A DNA stretch of 36,568 nt from Vulcanimicrobiota bacterium (GTDB lineage Bacteria; Vulcanimicrobiota; Vulcanimicrobiia; Eremiobacterales; Eremiobacteraceae). The DNA is taken from assembly GCA_014304875.1 (NCBI GenBank), contig JACRUD010000206.1, forward strand, positions 1-36,568, written 5' to 3'. This document shows positions 6,611 to 31,286 of this stretch, piece after piece. The notes below the pieces were generated by a model. That model was not told the DNA's origin. It saw nothing but the letters and a program-made list of their open reading frames with translations, and searched no databases. Numbering within the stretch: the first letter of the stretch is position 1; every line of letters begins with the position of its first letter. The position numbers were made by a program, and so were the translations under genes.

Positions 6611-9600
6611 CTAGCTTGCGTAGTCCATGCAGGGCGCCGCGCGATATGGGCATGTCCGGCACCACGCTCCCGGTCGCGGTGTGACGTCACCCGACTCGAT
6701 TCCGGAGGTGGCGGCGCGTACGCGCGCCTCGACTTGTGCAGCGTCTAACGGCTCCACCGCTTCGAACGCGAAGGGCCCGTCGCCCACGCGGCCCACCAGG
6801 TGGTTCTGCGCCGCGATTTTGTATGCGCGGCGCGCGCCGTCTGCGTAAAGCCCGAATTGCAAGCGGTAATCCTCGACCGGCCACTCGCCTGTCTTGAAAT
6901 CCACAACGGTCAACCGCCCATCGGGGTCGGTCGCCATCAAATCGATGTACCCGCTGACCGCAATCCCGCCGTAGTCGAGCACGAACGGCGCCTCGACGTG
7001 CAGCGGCCTCCATCGGCACAACGCGGCCGCCGCGCTGCACACGGCGGCGTTTGCTCGTTCGGCGTCCGGGCGCGCGACATGCTCGCTGAGATCGGCTGCA
7101 GCCCGTTCGACGATGGCACGCGCGTCGGAGAGAGGTTCGCAGGCCCTGTCGATAGTCCGACGCAACCATAATTCTAGCGAGCGGTGCACGAGGCGGCCAT
7201 ACCCGCCCAAGGACAGCGGAAGAATATCCGGCATTATCTGGTCGTCTTCCACCTGCCGGCTCGTACCCGGCGCGAGCGGCGGGAGTCCCAAAGCCAGTTC
7301 GTAATTGACCTGCCGCGCACAGCGTTCGAAACGCGTTAGCAGCGAGAACGACAGCGTCGGCACGCGAAACTTTGCCGGCGCCCTCGGCAGTCGCGCCGCC
7401 ACCCCCTCGGGTCGTGCTTCGAACTCGGCTATTTCGGATCCGGCGTCGGTGTGGCTTGGCTCAGAGTCCACAGCTGCCAGCGCCAGGGGAAGTTGGCGCG
7501 CCGCTTCGCCGTTAAGTGCTCCCGTCAGCGGGGGCAGCGGTTCGTCCAAGGGCCAGCCGCGATTCTCCATCCAAGCGATGGCATCCGCGAGGAAGTCGTC
7601 CGGCTTGCCCCCCGGAAAGGATTTGCTCGGCTGTCCGCGCTTGCCGCTGATGAATAGCTCGTCGCGCGCGCGGGTCACCGCCACGTAATAGAGCCGGCGC
7701 TCCTCGCGCTCGCGGCTGTCGTCCTTTGCGCGGTCCTTTCTGGGTAAAGTATGCCCCCGGCTGTCGGCGTCTTCTTGGAGCGCATGGGTGTGAAAAGGTC
7801 TGACGCCGTCACCGCCCTCTGAGACGATCAGGGCGCCGGTTCGGTCGTCCACACGCACCGGCAGCTTGTCATGCTGGCCCCGCGGCCAGACATCGACGAT
7901 GAAGACGATCGGCCACTCGAGGCCTTTTGCCGCGTGGATCGTCATGACGCTCAGTGCGTCGGCGGACGGCGGGTCGGCTTCGCGATCGTCCTCCATCGAC
8001 TGCTCCAAGGCGTAGATGTAGCCGACGAAATCCGCCGGCCGCGCTCCTGGGTTGCGTAGCCCGAAAGTGCGCGCCAAGCTGCCCAGTTTGCGCAGGTTTG
8101 CAAGCGCTTGGGCGGCGTCCCGCGCGCCGCTTGAGGCCGCGCTGCGCGCAAGGCCGCTGCGTTCGAGGATCGCTTCGTATGCCAGACCGACCGGCGCGCC
8201 CGCGTAGTTTTCGAGCGCTTCGAGCGCCTTGCGCAGTCGCTCTATCCGCTCGCCTCCCTGAGGGTTCAAGCCGTCAGCTAAAGGATCGACGAGCAACCGG
8301 CGCGCGAATATGTCGGCGTCTTCGGCGCCGCGCGGCTGGCCGGCGGCGGGAACCGGATTCAACTCGCTTAGGGTGGCATCGGAGATGCCGATGCCCGGAG
8401 ATGCGGCCGCTCGCGCGAGCGGAATCGAGTCGAACGGGTCTGCGAGCAACTTCATCCAGCTCAGCGCATCGATGACCTCGGGCGCGTCGTAAAAGCCTAC
8501 TCCTCCGAAGAGTCTGTACGGGATGCCGAACTCGATCAGTGCGTCCGTATACGGCTGAATCTTCGTCTTGTTCCGGCTGAGGATGGCGATGTGCCGTGGC
8601 CCAAGCGCTACTCGGCGGCCCGACTCCTCGACGCTGCGGCCGCTTTGCAGCATCCAAGCGATGCGCCGTGCCACGGCCGAGCCCTCGCGTTTACGCGACT
8701 CCTCGGCATTGGGTGGAGGGCTGCCCGGCCTGGCGAAGCCGGCGCTGACGTGGACCACTTGCGTCTGAGCGCTGCCGCGCGCGGCGCGCAGCGGGCTTGC
8801 GTCGCCGCTGTGCGGCGAGATGAGGTGATGGCCGAGGTCGAGTATCTCTTGGCGAGAGCGCCGATTCTCGCTCAGCGCGTAGTCGGCGCAACGGTCTGAC
8901 TTGCGGAAGACTTCGAAGTTGCGCGGGTCTGCGCCGCGGAACCCGTAGATGCTCTGGCGCGGGTCGCCGACCGCCATGACGCCGGCAAAGCCGCCGAAGA
9001 TCGCTTCGAGCAGGGAGTCCTGACGCGGATCCGTGTCTTGAAACTCGTCGACGATGCAATGCTTGAAGCGGCGGCGCAGGTCGTGCGCGATGGTCGGCCT
9101 TTCCCGCAACGCGTTCTCCGCGAGCAGAAGAAGATCGGCGTACGTCAGCGCACCGCGCAGGGCGAGCCTTTCGTCGAACCGGCGGAACAGGGCGCAGGCC
9201 GCTTCAACGCGCGCTCGCTCGGCCTTTATCTGGGCATCGAACTCAGCATCGCTGACTTTGGCGCCGGGCCTCAATCCGCGCTTGTTCTCTTGCACTAACT
9301 CACGATAAGGTACTCGGGCGAAGTCATCCGCCGCCCCGAGCGCCCGGCGGCGAAACGCCTCGATGCCGATTCCGGTATCCTTTAGTTTTTGGACGATCAA
9401 AAACAACGACTCGCGAACTTCGTCGCGCAACGGAAAGCGCAGGCAGTAGTTGGATGCATCTTCGGGCAGGTCGCCGCGTTCGAGTTCACCGAACGCTAAT
9501 GCGAACTCTAGCCGCGCGTCGACTTCGTTGATCAAGTTGAGGTCAGGCGAGATCGTCAGATCGTAAGCGTACTGCCTGAGAACCCCGAGCGCGAATGCGT

Positions 9601-27637: not shown

Positions 27638-28102
27638 ATGAACCCCCGGAATCACTTTGCGATCGTCTTGCTAACCGGTTTGTCGCTGGCTCTGACCAGG
27701 CCCGTTCTCAGCTCGCCTACACCGTCGCCCTTGGCGCCCGCCGACGAGTATTTCGGTCGACAAAAACTGAGCATTCTCAGCATCACCAATACTTTGCACG
27801 ATGCCAGCCGGCGTGTGGCCGTCAATCCCAAGCGCGCGCCCTCTTTATATAAGCCGCTGCTGACCGTAGAAGATGCCGTCCAAGACTGGGCGCGTAAATA
27901 TCCGCAGGACGCTTGGATCGCGCCGCGCGCGCAGACGATGTTTCACCTATTTCGCTGCATGGGCACAGGCGACGGCGAACGAGAGGCCGACCACTGTCGA
28001 GACCTGATCGCGCGAGTCAGCCCCGGCCCTAGGACGACGATTGCGAACGCAAAACGCCCAGCAGCAGGAAGCCACGCTGCCGGCCCGACGGTTTTGCCCT
28101 AA
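27638..28102 (+). CDS. Secreted protein of unknown function
   Basis: The 154-residue protein starts at ATG 27638 after a good ribosome binding site (gaaagggag, 8 bases before). It has a signal peptide (FAIVLLTGLSLALTRPVLSS). The mature part reads ADEYFGRQKLSILSITNTL and later EDAVQDWARKYPQDAWIAPRAQTMFHLFRCMG, a helical pattern resembling small tetratricopeptide-like periplasmic proteins. The C-terminal 25 residues are Ala/Pro/Arg-rich and probably disordered. It is the last of four small genes on this strand; a type A repeat follows 47 bases after its stop. Confidence 0.68.
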   Translation: MNPRNHFAIVLLTGLSLALTRPVLSSPTPSPLAPADEYFGRQKLSILSITNTLHDASRRVAVNPKRAPSLYKPLLTVEDAVQDWARKYPQDAWIAPRAQTMFHLFRCMGTGDGEREADHCRDLIARVSPGPRTTIANAKRPAAGSHAAGPTVLP

Positions 28103-28148
28103 AGCGTAGCGGGGACGATTTGCCCTTACGCCGCGTCGGGCGCGGGAG

Positions 28149-28180
28149 ACGGACCTGAAGGTCCGTGGCTACGTAAGGGG
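28149..28180 (+). repeat. Palindromic repeat, type A, forward
   Basis: acggacctgaaggtccgt is a perfect 8-pair hairpin apart from its two-base tip; the tail ggctacgtaaggggg differs from ggctacattgg at two positions. It lies after the 27638-28102 gene and before the ferritin-like gene. Confidence 0.75.
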
Positions 28181-28203
28181 GTTTAAAGCGTTGGGGCGGC
28201 CAC

Positions 28204-28217
28204 GCCTTGGGTATAAC
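28204..28217 (+). promoter_or_regulatory. Promoter-like element before the ferritin-like gene
   Basis: The 17 bases ending at 28217 (cacg, three variable bases, tgggtataac, allowing t at the fourth) match the element at 30471-30487 before the metallothionein gene at 14 of 17 positions. gggtat or gtataa would serve as the -10. gtttaa at 28181-28186 resembles a stress-sigma -35, but at 22 bases the spacer is too long. Confidence 0.4.
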
Positions 28218-28272
28218 TATGCGAACCTTAGACCTTCAGTTGTTCCAACCATAGTAGAAGGGATTTTCTTGG

Positions 28273-28593
28273 ATGGGATTCGAGCAGTATCACGAACCGG
28301 CCAACGAACTGAGCGAACAGACGCGCACGTTCGCGCGCATGGCGGTATCTTTGGGTGAAGAAGCCGATGCGATCAATTGGTACGAGCAACGGATGTCGGT
28401 CGAGAAAGACCCGGCCGCGAAAGCGATCATGGAAGACGCGCAAGAAGAAGAGTTCAAACACTTCGGAATGGCGCTGGAATACCTCGCCCGCCAGAAGCCC
28501 AAATGGAAAGCGACCTTGCAGAAGATCTTGTTCCAAAGCGGGGACCTCGTGACGCTCGGCAAGAAGGGCGAAGAAGCGGCCGAGGGCTCGTGA
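28273..28593 (+). CDS. Encapsulated-ferritin-like (EncFtn family) iron-binding protein, without encapsulin
   Basis: The 106-residue two-helix protein matches the EncFtn ferritin-like family in its opening (YHEPANELSEQTR), first helix (SLGEEADAINWYEQR) and second helix (DAQEEEFKHFGMALEYL). By alignment from memory with Rhodospirillum EncFtn (offset of two), the ferroxidase ligands are Glu30, Glu60 and His63, with Tyr37, Trp36 and the entry-site Glu29/Asp32. EncFtn forms a decamer that oxidises Fe(II) inside an encapsulin shell. Here the C-terminus ends KKGEEAAEGS without the usual shell-targeting peptide, and no encapsulin gene is in the window. A Shine-Dalgarno (gaaggga) lies about 10 bases before the ATG. 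The next gene starts on its stop codon (TGATG). Confidence 0.78.
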   Translation: MGFEQYHEPANELSEQTRTFARMAVSLGEEADAINWYEQRMSVEKDPAAKAIMEDAQEEEFKHFGMALEYLARQKPKWKATLQKILFQSGDLVTLGKKGEEAAEGS

Positions 28594-29510
28594 TGGCACC
28601 TCTGACCGATCCGTCGAACGCGAGCAAAGCCGATCTTAATAGAAAAGCATTTATCGCCTTATCGGGGGGTGCCCTCGCGTTGAGCACAAGCATGGCCGCG
28701 GCGCTGGCGGCGGGCGAAGGCTTCGGCATGTTCCACGACCCGATCGTTTCCGAAGACGACCCCGCCATCGTGGTCGAACGGCCGACGTTAAAGAGGCCCG
28801 GCGGCGATGTCGACTCGTACGCCGCGCTGCCCCGCGGTGCGTCGAAAAACGCACCCGGCGTGGTGGTCGTGCAGGCCATCTGGGGAATAGACACGCAACT
28901 GCGCGATGTCGTGCGGCGCTTTGCCAAAGCGGGGTACGTGACGATCGCGCCCGACCTTTTCGCCCGCCTCAATGCTCCGAGCGGCGACCATGCGTCGGAC
29001 TACGCGCCCTATCGCGCGCTGGCGGAAAAATTGAGCGACGACCAAGTCGACGGCGATTTGCAAGCCGGCGGGACGTGGATACGGGCGCGCGCCGGCGTGG
29101 GGTCAACCGATCGCCCGCCGAAGGTGGGCATCACCGGTTTTTGCATGGGCGGCGGCATCGCGTTTAGGCAAGCTATCAGCAAGCCGGCGTTCGACGCGGT
29201 CGCGGTGTGGTACGGCAAAGTGCGGCAACGTCCGCGCGACGGTGGCCCGGCCACGGAACCATCTTTGGCCTACGCCGATGCGCTCAGCATCCCGTTGCTC
29301 GGGAGTTTCGGGGGTCGAGACACGAGCATCCCGGTCGAGGAGGTGCGCCAGCTCGATCGGCGCCTGCGCGGCGCCCACGACATCAAGATCTACGACGAAG
29401 CGGGCCACGCGTTTTTCGATGATCAGCGATCGAGTTACGTCCCTTCGGCGGCCACCGACGCCTGGACCCGCACCCTCGCGTGGTTCCACCGCTACCTCAC
29501 AGCCGCTTAA
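28593..29510 (+). CDS. Dienelactone hydrolase-family alpha/beta hydrolase with N-terminal signal
   Basis: The 305-residue protein overlaps the ferritin-like gene by one base (TGATG), so the two are coupled. The N-terminus SKADLNRKAFIALSGGALALS resembles a secretion signal with a single-Arg, Tat-like start. The catalytic triad of the family is present as Cys184 (GFCMGGG), Asp243 (GGRD) and His272 (AGHAFF). The usual Glu after the first strand, which controls the Cys in dienelactone hydrolase (QEIFG), is Ala95 here (QAIWG), so the nucleophile may be set up differently. The substrate is unknown. Export would place it in the periplasm, away from the classical chlorocatechol pathway. Confidence 0.85.
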   Translation: MAPLTDPSNASKADLNRKAFIALSGGALALSTSMAAALAAGEGFGMFHDPIVSEDDPAIVVERPTLKRPGGDVDSYAALPRGASKNAPGVVVVQAIWGIDTQLRDVVRRFAKAGYVTIAPDLFARLNAPSGDHASDYAPYRALAEKLSDDQVDGDLQAGGTWIRARAGVGSTDRPPKVGITGFCMGGGIAFRQAISKPAFDAVAVWYGKVRQRPRDGGPATEPSLAYADALSIPLLGSFGGRDTSIPVEEVRQLDRRLRGAHDIKIYDEAGHAFFDDQRSSYVPSAATDAWTRTLAWFHRYLTAA

Positions 29511-29530
29511 CCGTCGGAAAGGGAAGCACG

Positions 29531-30400
29531 ATGATCGACATGCTGCTCGAAATGGTGGATTCAAGCGACGAGCTGAGCCGGCTCAGCGAACGCGTGCAGC
29601 CGGCGGTGCTGGACGCATTTAAAAACGCGGGCGCCGTGGGCGGCGACGTGAAGAACGCCTTGCATGGGACCTGGCTGGGGCACCCGCTTCATCCGGTCCT
29701 CGTCAGCCTTCCCATCGGCGCCTGGACGGCGGCGGTTCTATTCGATGTAGGTTCGGGGATTTTCGGGCGCAAGGAATTACGCGCCGGCGCAGATGCGTGT
29801 GTCGCGTTCGGCCTGGTCGGAGCGCTTGGGTCGGCAGCTACCGGGCTTGCCGACTGGACGGGGGTCACGGGGAAGGGACGGCAATTAGGTTCGGCCCATG
29901 CGATCCTGAACCTGAGCGCAACGGCTTTATTCGCCACGTCGCTCGGCTTGCGGCGGGCTCGCCATCGCAAGACGGGCATCGCAACCGCGCTGATGGGCTA
30001 CGGCCTGGCGCTGGTCTCTTCGTACATCGGCGGGGATTTGGTCTACGGCAAAAAGGTCGGCGTCGATCATGCAGAGCGCGATGGACTGCCTGACGATTAC
30101 GTCGCCGTGCTTGCCGAGGGGGAGCTCGAGGAGGGGCGACCGCGTCGGGTTGATGCCAAAGGCGCTCCGGTCGTGCTGGTGCGCCAGGGCGACACCATTC
30201 GGGCTCTTTACGAGAAGTGTTCGCACATGGGCGGCCCGCTCGCCGAGGGAAGCGTTGAAGGCGACAACATACGCTGCCCTTGGCACGGCTCATGCTTCTC
30301 CCTAGACGACGGCCACGTGGTAGACGGTCCGGCGACGTTCCCCCAGCCGTGCTTCGACGCCCGCATCAACAAGGGCCAGATCGAAGTCCGCCGAGTGTAG
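29531..30400 (+). CDS. DUF2231 membrane domain fused to a Rieske [2Fe-2S] ferredoxin domain
   Basis: The 289-residue protein begins with about 45 soluble residues, then a DUF2231 membrane domain (about 48-175, with GHPLHPVLVSLPIGAW and four hydrophobic segments). A C-terminal Rieske domain follows (about 185-285). The cluster ligands are all visible: Cys230-x-His232 (CSHMGGPL) and Cys249-xx-His252 (CPWHGSCF). The fusion puts a ferredoxin-like redox centre on the membrane; the electron partners are unknown. The ATG at 29531 follows ggaaagggaag and starts 20 bases after the hydrolase stop, so it is in the same operon as the ferritin-like protein. The open frame upstream of 29531 is not supported. 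Confidence 0.87.
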   Translation: MIDMLLEMVDSSDELSRLSERVQPAVLDAFKNAGAVGGDVKNALHGTWLGHPLHPVLVSLPIGAWTAAVLFDVGSGIFGRKELRAGADACVAFGLVGALGSAATGLADWTGVTGKGRQLGSAHAILNLSATALFATSLGLRRARHRKTGIATALMGYGLALVSSYIGGDLVYGKKVGVDHAERDGLPDDYVAVLAEGELEEGRPRRVDAKGAPVVLVRQGDTIRALYEKCSHMGGPLAEGSVEGDNIRCPWHGSCFSLDDGHVVDGPATFPQPCFDARINKGQIEVRRV

Positions 30401-30470
30401 CTTTCGCGTTCCTTTCGCGGCGCCGCTACGGAGGGCTGTCGGGCGTGAAAACCGGAATGTGGTGAAGCGG

Positions 30471-30487
30471 CACGGAGTGGGTATAAC
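30471..30487 (+). promoter_or_regulatory. Promoter-like element before the metallothionein gene
   Basis: cacggagtgggtataac, nearly identical to the element before the ferritin-like gene (cacgccttgggtataac). An ECF-like ggaat lies further upstream at 30454-30458. The element is 48 bases before the start codon. Confidence 0.4.
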
Positions 30488-30521
30488 CAGTCGGTACCGA
30501 CGAAACGCCGCAACGATTTGC

Positions 30522-30529
30522 GGAGGAGG
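30522..30529 (+). promoter_or_regulatory. Ribosome binding site of the metallothionein gene
   Basis: ggaggagg lies 5 bases before the ATG at 30535, close to the ideal Shine-Dalgarno. Confidence 0.7.
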
Positions 30530-30534
30530 CGATC

Positions 30535-30675
30535 ATGGCGAAGTGTGGATGCGGATCATGCAGTTGCACGGTCGAGGCGGAAGGCGGCAAGGCCGGCTAT
30601 TGCAGCGACGTCTGCAAGGCGGATTGCGGGAGCAGCCGCAGCTGCGATTGCGGCCATCCGGATTGTAAGCCGTAG
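30535..30675 (+). CDS. Bacterial metallothionein, 46 residues
   Basis: A 46-residue frame, too short for many gene finders, holds ten Cys and one His. It opens MAKCGCGSCSCTVEAEGG (CxCxxCxC), continues KAGYCSDVCKADCG and ends SCDCGHPDCKP. This is the layout of bacterial SmtA/BmtA metallothioneins (CxCxxCxC, then YCSxxC, then CxCGHxxC). These bind zinc, cadmium or copper in a thiolate cluster in the cytoplasm. Its ribosome binding site is excellent. It follows the ferritin-like/hydrolase/Rieske operon by 134 bases and has its own promoter-like element. An inverted pair of type B repeats follows directly after the stop and could act as its terminator. Confidence 0.85.
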   Translation: MAKCGCGSCSCTVEAEGGKAGYCSDVCKADCGSSRSCDCGHPDCKP

Positions 30676-30681
30676 CGCTTT

Positions 30682-30707
30682 TGTAGCGCCGCGGCTTCGG
30701 TCGCGGC
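30682..30707 (-). repeat. Palindromic repeat, type B, reverse orientation
   Basis: On the minus strand it reads gccgcgaccgaagccgcggc followed by gctaca, matching the copy at 22219. It starts 6 bases after the metallothionein stop and faces the forward copy at 30727. Confidence 0.75.
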
Positions 30708-30726
30708 CCGCGGTGCCCGCGAATGC

Positions 30727-30757
30727 GGCCGCCACTAAAGCGGCGGCGCTACATTAG
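30727..30757 (+). repeat. Palindromic repeat, type B, forward
   Basis: ccgcc/ggcgg-type arms around actaaag, followed by cgctacattag. With the reverse copy at 30682-30707 it makes a larger foldback: tgtagcgccgc (30682-30692) can pair with gcggcgctaca (30743-30753). Confidence 0.8.
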
Positions 30758-30830
30758 CAGCGGCTAGTGCCAGCGGCTCCCAATCGGTAGGTTGCAGTAA
30801 AAAGCGCAATGGCGCCGTATACAGCGCCGC

Positions 30831-31286
30831 ATGGATATCCGCATGGCGACGGCTGGGGCTGTGTTAGCCGCCGTCGTCGGCGCTTCCACGCCTTCGCTCC
30901 CATCTTTTAGCGGGCGCGGGCCTCTGGCGCACGATCGAGAGTGCGCGATGACGGCCATCGCCAAGATCGTGAATAGGGATCGTTATCGAGACACCCTCGA
31001 AGGAACGCATTTCTCAAGCGGCCGCAGCTCCTTGCGTCTGGAGTTCGCAAACGGGTGGGTGATCGATGGCTACTCGCCGTTAGCCGTCGCCTTTGAGGAC
31101 GATCCCCACGCCGTGCTGGCTTTTCGGCCGAACGATAAGGTTCAAGCGTGTCCGATCCAGCGCACGTACTGCGATGACGATCGGGGCGATTGGCAAGTGG
31201 CGCTTCGGGTTTACGATTTTACGGCTAAGGAGTCAGTCACCGGACTGCAATCTCACTGCCGGCAACTACTGCCGGACACCGATTAG
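30831..31286 (+). CDS. Secreted protein of unknown function
   Basis: The 151-residue frame starts at ATG 30831 (a second ATG at 30843 is equally possible; neither has a clear ribosome binding site). A short signal-like segment (ATAGAVLAAVVGAST) is followed by a mature part with four Cys (RECAMT, VQACPIQRTYCDDD, SHCRQ) and strands such as SSLRLEFANGWVIDGYSP and WQVALRVYDFTAKE, suggesting a small beta-rich periplasmic domain. No family recognised. Confidence 0.55.
   Translation: MDIRMATAGAVLAAVVGASTPSLPSFSGRGPLAHDRECAMTAIAKIVNRDRYRDTLEGTHFSSGRSSLRLEFANGWVIDGYSPLAVAFEDDPHAVLAFRPNDKVQACPIQRTYCDDDRGDWQVALRVYDFTAKESVTGLQSHCRQLLPDTD

What the first reader, a model, noticed from the sequence alone, without database searches (positions are those of the whole stretch)
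28273..29510. Encapsulated-ferritin-type protein without encapsulin, coupled to an exported-type hydrolase
The EncFtn ligands appear conserved, yet the protein ends without a shell-targeting peptide and no encapsulin gene is nearby. Instead it is translationally coupled to a dienelactone-hydrolase-like protein and a Rieske membrane protein. This may be a shell-free iron-oxidation or iron-handling system with its own redox partner.
Basis: partly seen in the sequence, partly recalled or inferred. Interest (0 to 1): 0.65.

Follow-up and report, generated by a model that had tools for sequence, protein, structure and literature searches.

The report
Shell-free encapsulin-type ferritin, EncFtn-like variant
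The gene encodes a small iron-oxidising protein of the kind normally locked inside encapsulin shells, but here and in about 80 related genomes it has no shell-entry tag and no shell of its own; the two genes beside it are local company, not a conserved partnership.

Summary
ORF 28273-28593 is an EncFtn-like protein by Pfam (86 bits, cut-off 27) and by fold (AlphaFold pLDDT 92; best PDB matches are EncFtn structures). Its ferroxidase ligands are intact, it has no targeting peptide (TP), and no encapsulin (PF04454) was found in the 93%-complete genome. It overlaps a Tat-type dienelactone hydrolase (DLH) gene by 1 nt; a Rieske-DUF2231 gene follows.

"Shell-free" is general: of 80 further genomes with a TP-less relative only 9 hold an encapsulin, always beside DyP peroxidase, whereas all 11 sampled TP-bearing relatives have an encapsulin next door. 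The proposed redox partners are not conserved: DLH is beside it in 0 of 79 related loci, Rieske-DUF2231 near it in 1, and 19 DLH orthologues in related genomes lack both neighbours.

The protein belongs to a clade distinct from R. rubrum and N. europaea EncFtn. The putative Fe(III) exit site (His57, Glu64) is replaced by Asn/Asp and Lys, and one nested actinobacterial branch is shell-bound. Short TP-less EncFtns are already a described class (s-FLP), so this is a new variant of a known kind. Most likely it is a soluble ferroxidase for metal detoxification, without storage.

The parts
28273..28593 (+). EncFtn-like ferritin (106 aa), no targeting peptide
   Evidence: PF22277 85.8 bits; PDB relatives; AlphaFold model and Foldseek; intact ferroxidase-centre ligands
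28208..28219 (+). TGGGTATAACTA, possible promoter -10 or regulatory element about 55 bp upstream of EncFtn
   Evidence: The core GGGTATAAC occurs only twice in the window (0.01 expected) and 4 times in the genome; function not shown
28593..29510 (+). Dienelactone-hydrolase-like protein (305 aa) with Tat-like N-terminus; starts inside the EncFtn stop codon
   Evidence: PF01738 169.8 bits; Cys-Asp-His motifs; orthologues without EncFtn beside them
29531..30400 (+). Membrane protein with DUF2231 and Rieske [2Fe-2S] domains (289 aa)
   Evidence: PF09990 and PF00355; CxH...CxxH ligands
30478..30489 (+). TGGGTATAACCA, second copy of the shared element, about 46 bp upstream of the Cys-rich ORF
30535..30675 (+). 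46-aa Cys-rich, metallothionein-like ORF (10 Cys) behind a strong Shine-Dalgarno sequence; possible co-regulated neighbour
   Evidence: translation; only a sub-threshold PF02069 match, 8.9 bits against a cut-off of 33

Best explanation
The protein is a shell-free EncFtn: a two-helix ferritin half-unit that very likely pairs into a dimer with a di-iron ferroxidase centre at the interface and stacks into a ten-subunit ring. It oxidises Fe(II) with O2 as a soluble cytosolic ferroxidase, lowering reactive ferrous iron under metal or oxidative stress, but it cannot store a mineral core, and Fe(III) passes to the cell or to partners that differ between lineages. Shown here: family, fold, intact ferroxidase centre, no targeting peptide, no encapsulin found in this genome nor a matching one in relatives, and lack of conserved partners. 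Inferred: ring assembly, ferroxidase activity, cytosolic location and the detoxification role. The adjacent DLH and Rieske genes are probably co-transcribed by local accident.
For: Family and fold. Positions E29, E30, W36, Y37, E59, E60 and H63 are invariant in 80 of 80 sequences of the clade. No encapsulin in the own genome, in 44 of 46 TP-less genomes or in 27 of a further 34; all 9 exceptions are DyP-peroxidase systems with DyP next door. All 11 relatives with a targeting peptide have an encapsulin adjacent. The own genome has no PF00210 ferritin/Bfr/Dps, although 50 of 61 genomes of the set do. Metal-handling contexts: a divergent iron exporter mbfA on two Bradyrhizobium plasmids, and P-type ATPase, CusA/CzcA and CDF islands in Nitrobacteraceae. 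Literature: R. rubrum EncFtn alone oxidises Fe(II) but precipitates and does not store iron (PMC5012862); Bfr and MbfA cooperate in iron detoxification (PMC4902296).
Against: No activity or oligomer data. The putative exit/mineralisation residues H57 and E64 are replaced (N/D/S and K) in nearly the whole clade, so the chemistry could differ from R. rubrum EncFtn. Metal context is clear in only part of the family; neighbours elsewhere are a tRNA-synthetase-like gene, MttB, flavoprotein or oxidase genes. The two plasmids with mbfA share identical protein accessions, so they count as one event. G043 has both EncFtn and a PF00210 ferritin.
Confidence: 0.6

Rival explanations
1. It mainly buffers or detoxifies other divalent metals (Zn, Cd, Co, Cu) or guards iron sites against them, using the EncFtn scaffold as a metal-binding ring rather than as a ferroxidase.
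For: In Nitrobacteraceae the gene lies in Zn/Cd/Cu-type efflux islands: heavy-metal P-type ATPase upstream, CDF transporter downstream, CusA/CzcA RND nearby, also on conjugative plasmids. In the window a metallothionein-like ORF shares a rare 12-bp upstream element with it.
Against: The ferroxidase ligands including Tyr37 are invariant, which plain metal buffering would not require. The metal islands are one bacterial lineage; no such Cys-rich ORF was found near the gene in other loci, and the window's ORF is far below the metallothionein cut-off.
Confidence: 0.18
2. One reading: EncFtn, the DLH-like hydrolase and the Rieske membrane protein form one iron-oxidation system, with the Rieske protein as redox partner.
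For: Tight spacing: 1-nt overlap with DLH, 20 nt to the Rieske gene, same strand. One other locus (L036) has a Rieske-DUF2231 gene about 550 bp downstream of EncFtn.
Against: DLH adjacent in 0 of 79 relatives, Rieske near in 1 of 79. DLH orthologues in 19 related genomes have neither neighbour. EncFtn and DLH are likely on opposite sides of the membrane (inference).
Confidence: 0.06
3. The protein is packaged after all, by an encapsulin in the missing 7% of the assembly or by another shell, through an unrecognised signal.
For: PMC11202242 notes that short EncFtns could in principle be encapsulated without a recognised tag. A nested branch of the same clade is packaged. The assembly is 92.9% complete. 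The family 2 shell search is inconclusive because its control did not ring.
Against: TP and adjacent shell go together in 11 of 11 cases, while no genome with a TP-less member, this one included, showed an encapsulin other than a DyP-linked one (81 genomes). TP-bearing members carry both the same GDIV segment and a separate tag, so that segment is not a hidden tag.
Confidence: 0.08
4. A di-iron oxidase or peroxide scavenger acting on a non-iron substrate, with electrons from lineage-specific reductases.
For: In three Verrucomicrobiota loci the gene overlaps a pyridine-nucleotide-disulphide oxidoreductase gene.
Against: That pairing is confined to one lineage; R. rubrum EncFtn showed no peroxidase activity (PMC5012862).
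Confidence: 0.08

Closest known systems
Short EncFtn without targeting peptide (s-FLP), N. europaea NE0167, PDB 3k6c (PMC11202242)
   Same: Same fold (TM-score normalised to the target 0.89), intact ferroxidase centre, about 95-106 aa, no targeting peptide; 20 of 20 sampled genomes with the classical TP-less type also showed no encapsulin.
   Different: The window protein lies in another clade (100/100 branch), has Asp and Lys in place of His57 and Glu64, and an extra predicted C-terminal helix (residues 92-105).
Encapsulated ferritin EncFtn of R. rubrum (Rru_A0973) and H. ochraceum
   Same: Fold and ferroxidase ligands.
   Different: [quoted passage not shown] here no tag and no shell was found, and TIGR04535 is below its cut-off.
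Actinobacterial QYHEP-type EncFtn with encapsulin (L060, L064, L070, L139-L142)
   Same: Same clade; same kind of residues at the former exit site, with Lys at the Glu64 position in all seven.
   Different: They carry an added tail ending in a targeting peptide (e.g. GSLGIGSLKG) and an encapsulin gene directly downstream; the tail of L064 is partly masked.

Membership tests
EncFtn-like (Pfam PF22277) | Profile match above gathering score | tested here: met
   85.8 bits against 27, positions 1-84 of 85
EncFtn-like (Pfam PF22277) | Two-helix EncFtn fold | tested here: met
   AlphaFold pLDDT 92.4; the 47 PDB matches at E<=0.001 are EncFtn-type chains
EncFtn-like (Pfam PF22277) | Ferroxidase ligands E32, E62, H65, Y39 (R. 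rubrum numbering) | tested here: met
   E30, E60, H63, Y37; invariant in 80 sequences of the clade
EncFtn-like (Pfam PF22277) | Metal-dependent D5 decamer with ferroxidase activity | not testable with these tools
   Needs protein; only the monomer was modelled
Encapsulin-associated ferritin-like protein (TIGR04535; EncFtn as shell cargo) | Curated model cut-off | tested here: not met
   91.4 bits against 125
Encapsulin-associated ferritin-like protein (TIGR04535; EncFtn as shell cargo) | C-terminal targeting peptide | tested here: not met
   The sequence ends GDLVTLGKKGEEAAEGS; compare TP-bearing relatives
Encapsulin-associated ferritin-like protein (TIGR04535; EncFtn as shell cargo) | Encapsulin in the genome | tested here: not met
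   No PF04454 in the 92.9%-complete assembly; the family 2 model search was inconclusive
s-FLP (short EncFtn without targeting peptide) | Short, no targeting peptide, EncFtn fold and ferroxidase centre | tested here: met
   106 aa; class described in PMC11202242
s-FLP (short EncFtn without targeting peptide) | Groups with NE0167 in the family tree | tested here: not met
   Separate clade, 100/100; it fits the class by anatomy but is not the same lineage
Classical ferritin/Bfr/Dps (PF00210) | PF00210 profile | tested here: not met
   No PF00210 match anywhere in the own genome

The most novel reading that the evidence does not exclude
A second, widespread and mobile EncFtn clade works without a shell, as a free ferroxidase ring whose former mineralisation rim has been changed (His57 to Asn/Asp, Glu64 to Lys), so that Fe(III) is handed to partners (e.g. 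the MbfA exporter) instead of mineralising. Shell packaging appears in one actinobacterial branch of this clade, giving matched natural pairs of the same enzyme with and without a shell.
Probability: 0.3. Interest if true: 0.62.

Novelty: new variant of a known kind. Interest (0 to 1): 0.43.

Why it matters
R. rubrum EncFtn was reported to have an absolute requirement for an encapsulin in order to act as an iron store (PMC5012862). A large clade that keeps the ferroxidase centre but has neither tag nor matching shell asks what the enzyme is for without storage. Because one branch of the same clade is shell-bound, closely related pairs could test what a shell adds. It also warns against annotating every EncFtn hit as encapsulin cargo; on plasmids this gene is annotated only as a hypothetical protein.

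Tried and rejected
DLH/Rieske partnership: rejected as a conserved system. Hidden encapsulin: none found; encapsulins in relatives' genomes belong to DyP systems. Hidden targeting peptide in the GDIV/GDLV segment: rejected, since TP-bearing relatives have that segment plus a separate tag. Loss of the exit site as a mark of the shell-free state: rejected, because the shell-bound branch has the same Lys. Replacement of Dps/ferritin: only suggestive (both EncFtn-bearing members of the family, G000 and G006, lack PF00210 against 3 of 12 without EncFtn; G043 has both). sigma-70 promoter scan of 27900-30900: nothing. Phages: no relatives. Cys-rich ORFs near EncFtn in other loci: no convincing one. 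The PF19307 family 2 encapsulin search could not be judged because its control did not ring. My first automatic labelling of the tag missed L064 and L142 and was corrected for the final tree.

Full report
Check of the observation. ORF 28273-28593 (+) encodes a 106-aa protein that matches Pfam EncFtn-like (PF22277) at 85.8 bits, cut-off 27, and EncFtn chains of the PDB. An AlphaFold model from a 27-sequence alignment has mean pLDDT 92.4, with helices 15-43, 47-74, 76-83 and an extra C-terminal helix 92-105. Foldseek's best PDB matches are H. ochraceum EncFtn, N. europaea NE0167 and R. rubrum EncFtn, TM-score about 0.89 on the target. The ferroxidase ligands defined for R. rubrum (E32, E62, H65, Y39; PMC5012862) are E30, E60, H63 and Y37. 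The stop codon overlaps the start of a DLH gene by one base, and a Rieske-DUF2231 gene follows after 20 nt.

No shell found. No PF04454 encapsulin was found in the 92.9%-complete genome. A genome scan found 116 relatives, of which 80 loci were kept. They are spread over Pseudomonadota, Chloroflexota, Acidobacteriota, Gemmatimonadota, Verrucomicrobiota, Bacteroidota, Actinomycetota and others. Three of the 80 have an encapsulin directly downstream (L060, L064, L070), two of them with a readable targeting-peptide tail and one (L064) with a partly masked tail; the other 77 have no encapsulin in their flanks. Across wider samples every EncFtn of the tagged type had an encapsulin adjacent (11 of 11: L060, L064, L070, L104, L105, L128, L133, L139-L142). 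Among 80 further genomes with a TP-less protein of the window's type, 71 showed no encapsulin; the other 9 have one that sits beside DyP peroxidase, another cargo system. Twenty of 20 genomes with classical TP-less EncFtn also showed none. Many of these genomes are incomplete, so single absences are weak; the pattern is not.

Place in the family. A tree of 61 proteins, with the tail left out, puts the window protein in a clade of its own type (N-terminus QYHEP), split from the R. rubrum/NE0167 clade by a 100/100 branch. The shell-bound members of the window's clade form one actinobacterial group inside it. The tag needs three changes on the tree, and well-supported branches force all three (98 columns only, so finer order is unsure; the direction of change is not known). 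Positions E29, E30, W36, Y37, E59, E60 and H63 are invariant in 80 of 80 sequences of the clade. His57 and Glu64 of the proposed exit and mineralisation site (PMC5012862), both present in 25 of 25 classical sequences, are replaced by Asn/Asp/Ser and by Lys (78 of 80). The shell-bound branch shares this, so it marks the clade, not the loss of a shell.

Neighbours. A DLH relative is beside the gene in 0 of 79 related loci and Rieske-DUF2231 is near it in 1 (L036, with one gene between). The DLH has relatives across the bacterial class (57 of 61 genomes of the set have a match); the 19 best orthologues have neither EncFtn nor Rieske-DUF2231 nearby, and many have a twin-arginine signal. The adjacency in the window is therefore local. 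Elsewhere neighbours differ by lineage. In Nitrobacteraceae a heavy-metal P-type ATPase lies upstream and a CDF transporter downstream, with CusA/CzcA nearby, also on conjugative plasmids. On two Bradyrhizobium plasmids sharing one region the gene is divergent from the iron exporter mbfA. In three Verrucomicrobiota a pyridine-nucleotide-disulphide oxidoreductase gene overlaps its start. In Gemmatimonadota the upstream gene resembles asparaginyl-tRNA synthetase (my reading of the sequence, not scanned), and in Mesorhizobium it is MttB.

Local metal context in the window. A 46-aa ORF with 10 Cys at 30535-30675 looks like a metallothionein but is far below the Pfam cut-off. The motif GGGTATAAC occurs twice in the window (0.01 expected) and four times in the genome; the two window copies begin 64 and 56 bp before the starts of EncFtn and of this ORF. 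This hints at shared control; it is not proof. The genome shows no PF00210 ferritin, Bfr or Dps, unlike 50 of 61 genomes of the set.

Explanation. R. rubrum EncFtn without its shell oxidises Fe(II), aggregates and does not store iron (PMC5012862). The window protein keeps the centre that does this and has no tag and no shell that could be found. The best reading is a free ferroxidase ring for iron or metal stress without storage. Ring assembly and activity are inferred, and the altered rim means the product may leave differently.

Novelty. Short TP-less EncFtn is a described class (s-FLP; PMC11202242). I found no paper in the searched library on this clade, its altered exit site or its shell-bound branch; most subscription papers are not in that library, including the 2017 survey that first spoke of non-encapsulated members.

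Noticed in passing
window 30535-30675 (+): 46-aa Cys-rich ORF (10 Cys) with a strong Shine-Dalgarno sequence; metallothionein-like by eye, sub-threshold for PF02069.
   Followed up: partly
window 28208-28219 and 30478-30489 (+): TGGGTATAACYA precedes both the EncFtn gene and the Cys-rich ORF; the GGGTATAAC core occurs only four times in the genome, and at least one of the other copies lies inside an ORF.
   Followed up: partly
L048:8001-8315: The Mesorhizobium caraganae copy of the gene has an in-frame stop codon near codon 57, so it is probably a pseudogene.
   Followed up: no
L040:8001-8321 and 8760-9080: Two EncFtn copies with identical protein sequence lie in tandem in a Chloroflexi MAG; could be a real duplication or an assembly artefact.
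   Followed up: no
L016, L079, L081: Three small MAGs labelled Patescibacteria, Doudnabacteria and Kaiserbacteria (0.8-0.9 Mb) carry the gene; horizontal transfer or binning error.
   Followed up: no
L188:6854-8890 and L189:3854-5890: On Bradyrhizobium plasmids the EncFtn gene is divergent from mbfA (iron exporter) and followed by a cytochrome b gene.
   Followed up: partly
L013, L044, L073 (upstream gene, ending at 8001): In three Verrucomicrobiota loci a pyridine-nucleotide-disulphide oxidoreductase gene ends on the start of EncFtn; a candidate redox partner in that lineage.
   Followed up: partly
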